In this document: positions 23,431 through 28,396 of the stretch, piece by piece
How the letters are laid out: each line of letters begins with the position of its first letter
How positions within the stretch are numbered: position 1 is the stretch's first letter
DNA from: an uncultured Acidobacteriota bacterium
GTDB lineage: Bacteria; Acidobacteriota; Thermoanaerobaculia; UBA5066
Reading direction: 5' to 3'
NCBI GenBank assembly: GCA_903845115.1
Contig: CAIMWE010000059.1
Coordinates: 1-34,969 of the forward strand
DNA: 34,969 bases
Translations under genes and position numbers: made by a program
The notes under the pieces: model-generated
Databases searched by the model: none
The model's input: only the letters and a program-made list of their open reading frames with translations
Told to the model about the DNA's origin: nothing

Positions 23431-25656
23431 TCAGGAGCCTTTCGAAGTCCCCGGCGGCAGTACCAGCTTCCGCCGGGACGCGCTGACGTCGGACGGCGGC
23501 TTCACCGGAAGCCAGAAGGAGAAAATGGCTCCTCGGCCCAGCTCCCCTTCGGCCCAGATCCGCCCTCCGTGCCGGACGACGATCCTCCGGACCAGGGCGA
23601 GGCCGACCCCGGTCCCCTCGAACTCGTGGATCGCGTGGAGCCGGTGGAACACTCCGAACAGCTTGTCGACGAACTTCATGTCGAATCCGACCCCGTTGTC
23701 CCGGACCCGGTAGATCGCCTCGTCCCCCTCGACCTTGCCCTCGACGACGATTTCCGGGCGCTCCTGTCCAGAGGAGAACTTGACCGCGTTCGACAGGAGG
23801 TTCTCCCAGACCGTATTCAGGAGTCCGGCATCCCCGGTGGCCTCAGGCAGGACACCCACGGAGAAGGCGACCCGCGAGAGAAACGCAGGGTCCGCTACAA
23901 CCTGGGTGAATGCCTTCTTTGCGGCCTCGGTCATGTCCACCGAGCCAAAGGTGAGATCGGCCCGCCCCGCGCGAGAGAAGGAGAGGAGGTCGTCGATGAG
24001 GTGTCCCATCCGCTGAGCGTTCCAGCGGACCTGCCCGAAGTGGCGGCGTCCGTCGTCGTCGAGCTGCCCGCCATGGTCCCGGGCGATCAAGGCCGAGTGG
24101 CCGTCGATGGCCCGGAGGGGCGCCCGAAGCTCGTGGGCGACGGAGTACGAATAGGTTTCCAGCTCCCGGTTGGCTTCCGCCAGCTCCGCCGTCCTCTCCA
24201 CGACTCTCCGCTCCAGCTCGGCGTGGAGCGTCTGGAGTTCCTGCTCGGCCCGCTTTCGGTCGATGGCCGTCGCCATCTCGCCGGAAAGGAAAGAGAGGAA
24301 GTCCATGTCCGGCCTGCTGAAGCGCGCCTCGGTCGTGTAGGTCTGGACCACGACGGCGCCAATCGTCACGCCCGAGACCTCCAGGGGAGAGCCGAGCCAG
24401 CTGGAGGGAAAGGTGCCGTGGACTTCGACTTCTCTCCTCGCCACGAGATTCTCCAGGTCCTCGCGGGAAGCCAGCAGGGGCTTCCCGGTCCGGATCACGA
24501 ATTCCGTCAGTCCACGGCCAACGGGCTTCGGCGCGGGAGCCGGGTCGAACTCGTCCACGAAGTACGGAAATTCGAGCACTTCCTTCGCAGGGTCCAGAAG
24601 AGCGACGTAGAAGTTTCGCGCCTGAACCACTTCCCCGAAGATCGCGTGAGCGCGATCGAAGAAGTCGTCGAGGCTCCGTGTGCCGCTGGCAGCTTCCGAG
24701 ATACGGTAAGCCGCCTCCCGCATGCGCTCGGCGTGCCGCCGCCCGGTGATGTCCTCGAAGACACCCAGAATGCCCTGCGCCTCGCCTCTGGCGTCCAGCA
24801 TCGGGACCTTCGTCGTTTCGACCCACCGCTCGGTACCGTCCGACAGCCCACGCGCCGCCACGTGCCGTTTCGGGACCCCGCTCCCCATGACCCGCTCGTC
24901 ATCGGCTCGCTGGGCATCGGCTTCTTCCCGACGCCCGCTGAGGTCGAAGTCCGACTTGCCGACAACTTGCTCCGGGCCGGCCAACCCCACCCATCGGGCG
25001 AAGGGTTGGTTGCATCCGAGGTAGACGCTGGCCCGGTCCTTCCAGAAGATGGCCTGGGGGACCGAATCCAGGATCTCCCGGAGAAGAGCTCGATTGGCCC
25101 GTAGGGCCTCCTCCGCCTCCTTGCGCTCGGTCACGTCGGTCAACGCGACCCGACAGGACCTCGACCCGGAGAAAAGGTCGTCGTGGACGACGGAGTCGAT
25201 CCGGCCCCGGAAAGGCGCGCCTTCCTCCGTCACCATCCTCACCTCGAAGGACGACGGCTTCCCGGTCTCGAAAAGCCGCCGGAGGTGAAGGTCGTAGGTC
25301 TCCTGGCTCGCGGAATCGACGAAGCGGCTGAAGGGACGCCCGATGAGTGCCGTCCGGGGGACCCCCAGGCGGCCCGTGAGAGTCAGGTTCGCCTCCAGGA
25401 GCAGTCCCTTGTCATTCAGGACCGCGTATCCCACCGGGGCGAGGTCGTAGAGGTCGAAGTACTTCTCCCGGGATGCCTCCAGCTCGTCACGCGTTCGCCA
25501 CAGCTCCTCGTTCTGCAGCTCCATCTCGATCTGGCGGACCTCCAGCTCGTGGACGAGGCCGAGGGTCTCCTCGGGCCTCTGCTCGAGCCCGGGAGCTTTC
25601 CTGGCGGCGAGCCGGCGCTCGGCCTTCTCGCGCAAGGCCCGATCGTCATTCGTCAC
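23431..25656 (-). CDS. PAS-PAS-GAF sensor histidine kinase
   Basis: The 741-aa soluble protein has an N-terminal helical segment (about 5-62) like that of the 307-aa kinase. A PAS domain follows (about 65-178), then a second PAS (about 185-305; VPQAIFWKDRASVYLGCNQ), a GAF domain (about 315-465), a coiled coil, and HisKA with His508 in SVAHELRAPLRAI (Glu instead of the Asp in its two relatives). The HATPase domain carries NLLSNAVKFS, DNGVGFDM and EGTGVGLALVRR. GTG at 25656 is preferred because similarity to the short kinase begins there. An upstream in-frame ATG at 25833 would add 59 unrelated residues. A 14-codon reading frame (25653-25697) ends with a TGA overlapping this GTG, which may couple translation. 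No response regulator is nearby. Confidence 0.88.
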   Translation of the reverse strand: MTNDDRALREKAERRLAARKAPGLEQRPEETLGLVHELEVRQIEMELQNEELWRTRDELEASREKYFDLYDLAPVGYAVLNDKGLLLEANLTLTGRLGVPRTALIGRPFSRFVDSASQETYDLHLRRLFETGKPSSFEVRMVTEEGAPFRGRIDSVVHDDLFSGSRSCRVALTDVTERKEAEEALRANRALLREILDSVPQAIFWKDRASVYLGCNQPFARWVGLAGPEQVVGKSDFDLSGRREEADAQRADDERVMGSGVPKRHVAARGLSDGTERWVETTKVPMLDARGEAQGILGVFEDITGRRHAERMREAAYRISEAASGTRSLDDFFDRAHAIFGEVVQARNFYVALLDPAKEVLEFPYFVDEFDPAPAPKPVGRGLTEFVIRTGKPLLASREDLENLVARREVEVHGTFPSSWLGSPLEVSGVTIGAVVVQTYTTEARFSRPDMDFLSFLSGEMATAIDRKRAEQELQTLHAELERRVVERTAELAEANRELETYSYSVAHELRAPLRAIDGHSALIARDHGGQLDDDGRRHFGQVRWNAQRMGHLIDDLLSFSRAGRADLTFGSVDMTEAAKKAFTQVVADPAFLSRVAFSVGVLPEATGDAGLLNTVWENLLSNAVKFSSGQERPEIVVEGKVEGDEAIYRVRDNGVGFDMKFVDKLFGVFHRLHAIHEFEGTGVGLALVRRIVVRHGGRIWAEGELGRGAIFSFWLPVKPPSDVSASRRKLVLPPGTSKGS

Positions 25657-25759: not shown

Positions 25760-25978
25760 CTAGGCGCCGCTGGAACCGTCGGGGAGACGGCCCAACTTCG
25801 TAGAAGAGGTGCCGCCGAAAAGGCCCCTCGCATCCGTCAGGGCCTTCGTCCCGCCAGCGGCAGTCGATATCACGTGCACGTGGTCCGGCTGCCAATGGAT
25901 AACGCCCCCGCTGACGACGTCGAGGTCGGCATCGGTGAGTTCGGTAGGCGTTTCAGGGGGCTTCTCGTCCTGAGCCAT
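25760..25978 (-). CDS. Small peptide with double-glycine type leader, candidate RiPP/bacteriocin precursor
   Basis: The 72-aa product starts MAQDEKPPETPTELTDADLD and continues VVSGG. An acidic leader of the ELTDADLDxVSGG form is typical of peptides cut after Gly-Gly by C39-type peptidase/ABC exporters. The predicted mature part is about 47 aa, begins VIHWQPDHVHVIS, has four His/Trp-rich positions near its start, further GG pairs (STAAGG, LFGG) and no Cys. AAAGGAG lies about 6 nt before the ATG, a stronger SD than most genes here, and a TTGACA -35 lies upstream. Reading on upstream of the ATG in frame adds 36 residues without support. No maturase, peptidase or transporter is in the window, so the export route is unknown. 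The three-kinase cluster lies downstream on the same strand. Confidence 0.7.
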   Translation of the reverse strand: MAQDEKPPETPTELTDADLDVVSGGVIHWQPDHVHVISTAAGGTKALTDARGLFGGTSSTKLGRLPDGSSGA

Positions 25979-26013
25979 CGGGACTCCTTTCGGGCTCGCG
26001 CTGAAATGCGCAG

Positions 26014-26043
26014 ATCGTGCGGCGCCGAGCTCCGCGATGTCAA
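26014..26043 (-). promoter_or_regulatory. Candidate sigma-70 type promoter of the GG-leader peptide gene
   Basis: On the minus strand a perfect -35 TTGACA (26038-26043) is followed after 18 nt by CACGAT (26014-26019), which keeps the A2, A5 and T6 of the -10 consensus. The expected start near 26007 leaves about 28 nt of 5' UTR containing the AAAGGAG ribosome site. The 143-bp region is also the upstream region of the divergent integrase remnant. Confidence 0.45.
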
Positions 26044-26121: not shown

Positions 26122-26400
26122 ATGGCGAGCCTCGAGCGCGACAAGTGGGAAAACGTCATCCTCCGGTTCCGGGTCGGCGGTCGCGGCACGCCGGAGCTCC
26201 GGGAGAATCTCGGGCCGATGACGGTCGACGACGTCCGGGCCGAGGCGGACAAGATCGTCGGCCGCTGGTGCGGCACGACGCGGCACATTGATCCCCGGAT
26301 CATCTTCTCGGCGCTCGCCGATTCGTATGTGAAGGCTGAGGCGCCTCGGCTGTCGGATCAGGACCGGGCCCTCCTGTCGAGAGTCGTCCTGAGGCACCTT
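26122..26400 (+). pseudogene. 5' remnant of a tyrosine-type integrase
   Basis: The first 93 codons read like the N-terminal arm and SAM-like core-binding domain of a phage or island integrase: NVILRFRVGGRGTPELRENL, then DDVRAEADKIVG and FSALADSYVKAEAPRLSDQD leading to RHLRPLL. The catalytic domain is missing. Near 26400 the similarity in this frame ends and a different recombinase continues in another frame. In this frame translation runs to a stop at 26485-26487. AAGGGGGG about 7 nt before the ATG is a plausible ribosome site, so the 5' end looks original. The assignment is by pattern of the N-terminal region and is moderately sure. Confidence 0.55.
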
Positions 26401-26401
26401 C

Positions 26402-26741
26402 GACCTTTACTTCGAGCCGGACACTCTGCTCTACGAGAAGATCGACCAGGCTGCCTATCAGGCTCGACGGGCCCGCCTGGCATCTGATATCGAACGAGTG
26501 GAGGCAGAGCTAACGGAATGCGGTGATCCTGCCGCGAAGGTCCCACAGGCTCTCGATTTTGCGGTCGACGTTCTGTCTAACGCCAAGGCCCGTTGGCGCG
26601 GCTTCACGATGGAGCAGAGGCAACGCCTCATCAAGGCGTTCTTTCCGTCCGGCCTCGCATTTGACGGGCGAGAATTCCGAACACCCGTAACCGCCGCCTT
26701 TTTCAGTGTTTTAGGGACGATTTCGGGAGGAAATGAAAAGT
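26402..26741 (+). pseudogene. 3' remnant of a serine site-specific recombinase
   Basis: In the frame starting at 26402, DLYFEPDTLLYEKIDQAAYQ is followed by a coiled-coil segment (RRARLASDIERVEAEL). Then come WRGFTMEQRQRLIKAFFPSG, LAFDGREFRTPVTAAFFSVL and a short Asn-Glu-Lys tail, which is the usual C-terminus of large serine recombinases. The N-terminal catalytic and recombinase domains are absent, and a stop sits in this frame just upstream (about 26390). The frame continues into the antisense of tRNA-Glu, where it yields the familiar VPPAGFEPA string. That string is tRNA sequence, not protein. The remnant therefore ends at the tRNA 3' end, as expected for an integrated element. Confidence 0.65.
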
Positions 26742-26818
26742 TGGTACCCCCAGCGGGATTCGAACCCGCGATCTCGACCTTGAAAGGGTCGCGTCCTGGG
26801 CCGCTAGACGATGGGGGC
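26742..26818 (-). tRNA. tRNA-Glu (anticodon TTC)
   Basis: The minus strand folds as a cloverleaf. The acceptor stem is GCCCCCA with TGGGGGT (first pair G-U), the anticodon stem CGACC/GGTCG with loop CTTTCAA giving TTC, and the T arm GCGGGTTCGAATCCCGC. The discriminator is A and CCA is encoded. A recombinase remnant abuts the 3' end, so this gene probably served as an attachment site. Confidence 0.95.
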
Positions 26819-27663: not shown

Positions 27664-27692
27664 TTGACTTCCCGGTCCGACGTGCGCATATT
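27664..27692 (+). promoter_or_regulatory. Candidate leaderless promoter of hicAB
   Basis: TTGACT (27664-27669) and CATATT (27687-27692) are spaced by 17 nt, and the hicA ATG follows 8 nt later with no SD. TATTTA at 27689-27694 is an alternative -10. The local A+T-rich patch stands out in this GC-rich region. The HicAB complex commonly represses its own promoter, but I see only a weak GTG...CAC inverted element here. Confidence 0.5.
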
Positions 27693-27700
27693 TACACACT

Positions 27701-27889
27701 ATGACGAGCAAGGAAATCATCCGGCGAATCCAGGCGGCCGGATGGGCCCACGCTCGCACCACGGGAAGCCCCTGGCACTTCCAGCACGCCACGAGGCCCG
27801 GCGTCGTCACCGTCCCTCATCCGAAACGGGACATGGCGGTCGGGACGCTCAAGAGCATCGAACGCCAATCAGGGGTGAAGCTGACATGA
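27701..27889 (+). CDS. hicA: HicA-family toxin, catalytic His replaced
   Basis: The 62-aa protein has the small dsRBD-like HicA fold: TSKEIIRRIQAAGW at the start, then HFQHATRPGVVTVPHPKRDM and VGTLKSIERQSGV. HicA toxins cleave mRNA and use a His in a conserved Gly-Ser-His. Here the segment reads TTGSPWHFQH, with a CCC Pro codon where CAC His is expected, a one-base difference. The toxin may be inactive, or the His two residues on may substitute. Its stop overlaps the hicB ATG (ATGA). Start and promoter spacing suggest a leaderless mRNA. Confidence 0.85.
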   Translation: MTSKEIIRRIQAAGWAHARTTGSPWHFQHATRPGVVTVPHPKRDMAVGTLKSIERQSGVKLT

Positions 27890-28290
27890 CGACCTACATC
27901 GGACTTCTGCGGAAGGACCCGGACTCAGACTTCGGCGTCGACTTTCCTGACTTCCCCGGTTGCATCACGGCCGGGACGACGATCGAGGAGGCGGTCGTCA
28001 TGGCCCGAGAGGCCCTCGGCGGGCACATCGAGGCCATGGTGGAGGACGGGGAGGAGATCCCCGCCCCGTCCGGCCTGGAGGCCGTCCTGGCCGATCCGGA
28101 CAACAAGGGGGCCGTGCCGATCCTCGTGCCGGTGGAGCTGCCCGGGAAGGCCGTCCGCGTCAACATCATCGTCCCGGACCGCGACCTGAAGGCGATCGAC
28201 GCCTATGTGAAGAGCCACGGGATGACCAGGTCGGGGTTCCTCGTGACGGCCGCGAAGAAGGCGATGGGGGCGCGCGGAAAGCACGCGTGA
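27886..28290 (+). CDS. hicB: HicB-family antitoxin
   Basis: The 134-aa protein pairs with HicA. It has an N-terminal partial RNase H-like domain (TYIGLLRKDPDSDFGVDFPD, PGCITAGTTIEEAV, AREALGGHIEAMVEDGEEIP). A C-terminal ribbon-helix-helix (VRVNIIVPDRDLKAIDAYV, KSHGMTRSGFLVTAAKKAM) would bind the operator. Both regions look intact, so autoregulation remains possible even if the toxin is dead. The ATG overlaps the hicA stop, giving toxin-first order as usual for hicAB. A short GGCGA/TCGCC hairpin (28291-28306) follows the stop. tRNA-Lys lies convergent 32 bp downstream. Confidence 0.9.
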   Translation: MTTYIGLLRKDPDSDFGVDFPDFPGCITAGTTIEEAVVMAREALGGHIEAMVEDGEEIPAPSGLEAVLADPDNKGAVPILVPVELPGKAVRVNIIVPDRDLKAIDAYVKSHGMTRSGFLVTAAKKAMGARGKHA

Positions 28291-28321: not shown

Positions 28322-28396
28322 TGGTGAGCCGTGCGGGGATCGAACCCGCGACCTCTTGCTTAAAAGGCAAATGCTCTGCCACTGAGCTAACGGCCC
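28322..28396 (-). tRNA. tRNA-Lys (anticodon TTT)
   Basis: The minus strand gives acceptor GGGCCGT with ACGGCTC (one G-U pair), D arm GCTCAGTGGCAGAGC, anticodon stem TTTGC/GCAAG with loop CTTTTAA giving TTT, T arm GCGGGTTCGATCCCCGC, discriminator A and encoded CCA. It lies downstream of purA on the same strand, 46 bp after the purA stop. Confidence 0.95.

What the first reader, a model, noticed from the sequence alone, without database searches (positions are those of the whole stretch)
25760..25978. Orphan GG-leader peptide gene upstream of the kinase cluster
Seen: a 72-codon frame with AAAGGAG at good spacing, a TTGACA -35, an acidic leader ending in Val-Val-Ser-Gly-Gly, and a 47-aa Cys-free follower rich in His and Trp near its start. 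Known: leaders of the form ELTDxxLxxVSGG are removed by C39 peptidase/ABC exporters in bacteriocins, pheromones and many RiPPs. Inference: a secreted or modified peptide, perhaps a signal for one of the soluble kinases encoded next to it on the same strand. No export or modification gene is in the window, so a distant shared exporter would be needed. Peptides of this kind are often missed by annotation.
Basis: partly seen in the sequence, partly recalled or inferred. Interest (0 to 1): 0.72.

Follow-up and report, generated by a model that had tools for sequence, protein, structure and literature searches.

The report
Orphan short double-glycine leader peptide gene
A small, probably unannotated gene encodes a 72-residue peptide carrying the export-and-cleavage tag used by bacteriocin-like peptides; its genome has three complete matching exporters elsewhere, so it is most likely one more orphan secreted peptide of a prolific producer rather than a signal for the kinases beside it.

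Summary
Window 25978..25760 (minus strand) is a 72-codon ORF with GAAAGGAG before its ATG. A 25-residue acidic leader ends ELTDADLDVVSGG, followed by a 47-residue Cys-free core. The junction is not chance: the reversed-pattern control gave 0 hits in 61, 149 and 396 genomes. The genome has three complete NHLM-type export sets with intact C39 peptidases, and at least ten more double-glycine precursors whose junctions share Leu/Ile/Met(-12), Leu(-7) and Val/Ile/Ala(-4) before GG. These positions fill the pockets seen in the LahT C39 crystal structure, where the last 13 leader residues suffice for cleavage.

The peptide lacks the NHLP or Nif11 domain of most of those precursors: a "mini-leader" form. 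A second orphan of this form (71 aa, Cys-free) lies on contig C38, a third in a same-class genome.

The kinase-signal idea is not supported. The adjacent kinases are soluble. About ten recent paralogues of the first kinase share sequence only up to about its start codon. No GG peptide was found beside 80 kinase relatives.

The core has no homologue anywhere searched and weak coding statistics, as known precursor cores here also do. Verdict: new member of a known kind; modest interest.

The parts
25760..25978 (-). 72-codon ORF of the double-glycine leader peptide (stop codon included)
   Evidence: junction unique in the genome
25904..25978 (-). 25-residue leader MAQDEKPPETPTELTDADLDVVSGG; L-12, L-7, V-4, G-2, G-1
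   Evidence: recognition positions from PMC6363468
25763..25903 (-). 47-residue core VIHWQPDHVHV...GSSGA, no Cys, no homologue found
25984..25990 (-). ribosome-binding site AAAGGAG, 5 nt before the ATG
   Evidence: sequence
26038..26043 (-). TTGACA, possible -35; no matching -10 consensus
   Evidence: scan negative
23431..25656 (-). adjacent soluble PAS-PAS-GAF-HisKA-HATPase kinase, starting about 100 nt downstream of the peptide stop; judged not functionally paired

Best explanation
This is a stand-alone gene for a short double-glycine-leader precursor peptide. [quoted passage not shown] One of the three NHLM-type exporters encoded elsewhere in the genome would cut after Gly-Gly and export the 47-residue core VIHWQPDHVHV...GSSGA. 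The core is either unmodified or modified in trans by one of the genome's RiPP enzymes. Its likely role is a bacteriocin-like or other secreted peptide. Shown here: the ORF, its junction, the exporters and sibling precursors. Inferred: expression, cleavage, export and role.
For: Junction far above chance. In some searches, 12 of 13 hits to the junction pattern lie at the leader end of small precursor-like ORFs. Three NHLM export sets, scoring above curated cut-offs, carry the Q/C/H/D residues of C39. The genome carries five NHLP and about three Nif11 precursors plus others, several on contigs away from the exporters. A second orphan mini-leader Cys-free peptide sits at C38 next to a pyruvate:ferredoxin oxidoreductase-like gene; G106 has a further one. 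LahT cleaves a 17-mer holding only the last 13 leader residues, and also short leaders such as those of lacticin 481 and haloduracin beta (PMC6363468). 'Other' double-glycine precursors (150 of 290) are common in cyanobacteria, and some precursors escape annotation (PMC3140520).
Against: No homologue of the core in 60 relatives, 84,980 species genomes (pattern-seeded scan), IMG/VR or plasmids, so conservation cannot be used to show selection. The core's codon score is negative and the whole-ORF score lies below the 5th percentile of 73-codon stretches of neighbouring genes, although known precursor cores in this genome score as low. No promoter or terminator consensus. No modification or export gene was recognised on the 35-kb contig.
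Confidence: 0.72

Rival explanations
1. Decaying remnant: the ORF derives from an NHLP-type precursor (like those at C16, ADADLELVAGGxxxW) that lost its N-terminal domain, and the core is drifting; it is not, or barely, functional.
For: Core codon score is negative; no relatives keep it; among the closest junctions in the genome is the C16 NHLP pair, sharing D-x-D-L-x-x-V-x-G-G and a Trp at core position 4; flanking 25.98-26.74 kb holds no recognisable gene.
Against: The leader keeps every recognised C39 contact, an intact start codon and one of the best ribosome-binding sites among the precursors compared; leader codon score is positive; a separate Cys-free mini-leader peptide exists at C38, so the short form recurs.
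Confidence: 0.15
2. Peptide pheromone whose exported core is sensed by the adjacent histidine kinases.
For: Same strand, first kinase starts about 100 nt downstream; GG leaders are used by pheromones in Gram-positive bacteria (general knowledge).
Against: Adjacent kinases are soluble PAS/GAF proteins. About ten recent paralogues (72-90% DNA identity) share sequence only up to about the kinase start, not the peptide. No GG peptide beside 80 kinase relatives (675 kb) or beside the paralogues.
Confidence: 0.05
3. Chance ORF that happens to carry the motif.
For: Weak overall codon score; one of 13 pattern hits in relatives was a false positive inside an FAD-type enzyme (L023).
Against: 0 control hits in 61, 149 and 396 genomes, 0 in 2.1 Mb of Markov shuffles; motif sits 25 codons after an ATG with a strong RBS, in a genome with three cognate exporters.
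Confidence: 0.06

Closest known systems
NHLP (TIGR03793) and Nif11 (TIGR03798) leader RiPP precursors with NHLM exporters
   Same: Same junction grammar (E-L-[STN]-D-x-D-L-x-x-V-x-G-G); same genome holds five NHLP and about three Nif11 precursors above cut-off and three NHLM export sets.
   Different: The N-terminal NHLP or Nif11 domain (about 50-65 residues before the junction) is absent; no match to either model.
Short double-glycine leader peptides (class II bacteriocin type, TIGR01847/TIGR03949; 'Other' precursors of cyanobacteria, PMC3140520)
   Same: Leader of about 25 residues, acidic, ending in GG, with a short unrelated core.
   Different: No curated short-leader model matches above cut-off; no adjacent transporter or immunity gene recognised.
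CTB family bacteriocin (NF038167)
   Same: Only named peptide family giving any match, over the leader junction (14.3 bits, E = 0.034).
   Different: Far below the cut-off of 32 bits; core unrelated.

Membership tests
Double-glycine (C39-processed) leader peptides | Leader ending GG/GA/GS with hydrophobic residues at -4, -7, -12 | tested here: met
   V-4, L-7, L-12, D-8, G-2, G-1; contacts from PMC6363468
Double-glycine (C39-processed) leader peptides | C39 peptidase ABC exporter available in the genome | tested here: met
   Three, TIGR03796 1074-1101 bits against a cut-off of 853, catalytic residues present
Double-glycine (C39-processed) leader peptides | Actual cleavage after GG and export of the core | not testable with these tools
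   Needs an in vitro protease assay or peptidomics
NHLP leader family (TIGR03793) | Nitrile-hydratase-alpha-like N-terminal leader domain | tested here: not met
   No match in NCBIfam or Pfam scans; not among the genome's TIGR03793 matches up to E = 1
Nif11 leader family (TIGR03798) | Nif11-like N-terminal domain | tested here: not met
   Not among matches
CTB family bacteriocin (NF038167) | Score above curated cut-off of 32 bits | tested here: not met
   14.3 bits
Lanthipeptides | Cys plus Ser/Thr in the core for thioether rings | tested here: not met
   No Cys in the peptide
Peptide pheromone with adjacent receptor kinase | Neighbouring kinase with membrane or extracytoplasmic sensor, and co-conserved pair | tested here: not met
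   Soluble kinases; peptide not part of the duplicated kinase unit

The most novel reading that the evidence does not exclude
The genome uses a scattered set of domain-less 'mini-leader' double-glycine peptides with Cys-free cores (C59, C38, perhaps C117) as unlinked cargo of shared NHLM exporters: a secreted-peptide class, separate from the NHLP/Nif11 RiPPs, that cluster-based genome mining would miss.
Probability: 0.3. Interest if true: 0.5.

Novelty: new member of a known kind. Interest (0 to 1): 0.3.

Why it matters
If expressed, it shows that NHLM-type exporters can serve stand-alone mini-leader peptides located far from them, so searches limited to the surroundings of exporters or modification enzymes miss part of the cargo. 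It does not change what is known of the mechanism: C39 recognition of the last 13 leader residues is already established.

Tried and rejected
Core homologues: none in 60 relatives (the E of about 0.02-0.07 hits are weak and mostly fragments of larger frames, L007 overlapping an efflux protein), GTDB genomes, IMG/VR, plasmids. Synteny of the YceH neighbourhood: not conserved. Kinase pairing: rejected. A mobile-element origin near tRNA-Glu: no Pfam or PHROG match to the flanking ORFs. Structured RNA: only the tRNA. Structure prediction of the peptide alone: mean pLDDT 50.6, pTM 0.20, uninformative; a helix at residues 16-21 agrees with, but does not test, the expected C39-docking helix. Genome names are withheld, so the taxon was not determined.

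Full report
What is there. The sequence is MAQDEKPPETPTELTDADLDVVSGG | VIHWQPDHVHVISTAAGGTKALTDARGLFGGTSSTKLGRLPDGSSGA. The leader has net charge about -6.5, the core about +1 and no cysteine. GAAAGGAGTCCCG precedes the ATG.

Is it more than chance? The strict junction pattern occurs once in the 5.85-Mb genome, with no hit for the reversed control. A version with a looser residue before GG found 13 places in 61 genomes with 0 control hits. Twelve of those 13 are the leader ends of small precursor-like ORFs, and one is inside an FAD-type enzyme. Curated models confirm NHLP or Nif11 membership above cut-off for three of four tested. The LTD/VSGG form finds only this ORF and one more in 149 class members; the [ST]/VSGG form finds only this ORF and one more, a Nif11-type precursor, in 396 genomes of the phylum; both have 0 control hits. 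Markov shuffles of the window give none in 2.1 Mb.

Is it a gene? The reading frame is the best of six, but its codon score (-2) is far below that of equally long stretches of neighbouring genes (5th percentile about 13). Splitting the ORF explains part of this: the leader scores +5.4 over 25 codons, the core -7.4 over 48. The same split was made for thirteen other double-glycine precursors or candidates of this genome. All their leaders are positive, while seven of their cores are negative (for example C16a -7.1 over 13, C25a -14.2 over 78, C25b -7.0 over 44). So a poor core score is normal here, although it is also what decay would look like.

Exporters. The genome has three C39 domains. Each belongs to an NHLM-type set: peptidase-ABC (TIGR03796), second ABC (TIGR03797) and HlyD. 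The ABC models pass their curated cut-offs in all three sets, and TIGR03794 does in the two HlyD proteins tested. The third HlyD is called from its position and start (MIFRQVALDRLTSPEQLDQLM) and was not scanned. The Gln, Cys, His and Asp of the C39 active site are present in all three.

Siblings. Five NHLP precursors pass the cut-off and about three Nif11 precursors do; others carry the junction without either domain. The closest in style is C38: MTTREISDSGTEKEGTGPNAELNDEQLEGVAGG | GVASFVHDVMDRIKDKAMPVVVYATSDGSTWKADYGGE. It is 71 aa, Cys-free, and beside a pyruvate:ferredoxin oxidoreductase-like gene. C117 carries MPDEKTKKSDPEAAAQPVPEGKLSEQDLAWVSGKLSDEALEGLAGA..., next to a Nif11 peptide. In G106 of the same class a short peptide ends its leader CELTEDDLENVSGG. 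The whole genome carries 11 hits to the loosest pattern against 1 for the control.

How it would work. In the LahT C39 protease the recognition motif lies in the last 13 leader residues. [quoted passage not shown] short leaders (lacticin 481, haloduracin beta) are cleaved too (PMC6363468). The window peptide has V-4, L-7, L-12 and D-8. Loss of the NHLP or Nif11 domain therefore need not prevent cleavage. Haft et al. argued that leader conservation reflects the transport system more than the modifying enzymes (PMC2887384). Export by one of the three unlinked sets is the natural inference; which one, and whether the core is modified first, is open.

The kinase idea. The first neighbour kinase is a soluble PAS-PAS-GAF-HisKA-HATPase protein (highest 19-residue hydropathy 1.39). 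It has about ten recent paralogues in the genome with 72-90% DNA identity. Their similarity starts at, or within about 40 nt of, the kinase start codon (in some copies further inside) and never reaches the peptide. No double-glycine ORF was seen around those paralogues or in 675 kb around 80 kinase relatives. The two genes look like neighbours by accident.

What remains open. No homologue of the core was found, so selection on the core cannot be tested. Among the closest junctions in the genome is the C16 NHLP pair (QLADADLELVAGG-EMCW, QIADTDLELVAGG-NIRW, against ELTDADLDVVSGG-VIHW), all with Trp four residues after GG. A truncated derivative of such a precursor is possible. That reading is a rival on function (remnant) and also a plausible origin for a working mini-leader gene.

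Verdict. A real, probably unannotated double-glycine leader peptide gene; a new member of a known kind, with a short leader and an orphan position. Interest 0.3.

Noticed in passing
G000 contig C25, locus L168:7460-12206: LanB-like dehydratase with a TIGR03891 domain (1081 aa) flanked by two peptides with LSLKKETVK leaders that also end in a double-glycine-like junction: a class I lanthipeptide-like cluster.
   Followed up: partly
G000 contig C16, locus L159:3676-7051: Two NHLP precursors (cores EMCWGNCGNCAP and NIRWTNVCGFR) on either side of a radical SAM protein and a DUF2332 protein; Trp at core position 4 is shared with the window peptide.
   Followed up: partly
G000 contig C259, locus L163: NHLP precursor with Cys-rich core followed by YcaO and a ThcOx-type oxidase: a compact thiazole/oxazole cluster.
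   Followed up: partly
G000 contig C94, locus L017:4736-19999: NHLM exporter set beside a 1022-aa DUF4135 (LanM-type N-terminus) protein and a TfuA-like protein.
   Followed up: partly
window 23431-25656 and C2, C117, C169, C273, C127, C98, C194: A recently expanded family of soluble PAS/GAF histidine kinases (about ten copies, 72-90% DNA identity over the N-terminal part).
   Followed up: partly
window 26122-26740: Open frames on the + strand next to tRNA-Glu (26742-26818) that read to the eye like recombinase fragments, but match no Pfam or PHROG family.
   Followed up: partly
window 27664-28290: HicB-like antitoxin frame beside tRNA-Lys (28322-28396); the small ORF 27701-27889 before it looks HicA-like by eye.
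   Followed up: no
L051:1392-1625 (G106:C1313): Short double-glycine peptide whose core is a tandem repeat of Q-V-T-P-V-R-A, convergent with a gene that looks like a JmjC/cupin protein by eye (no NCBIfam match).
   Followed up: partly
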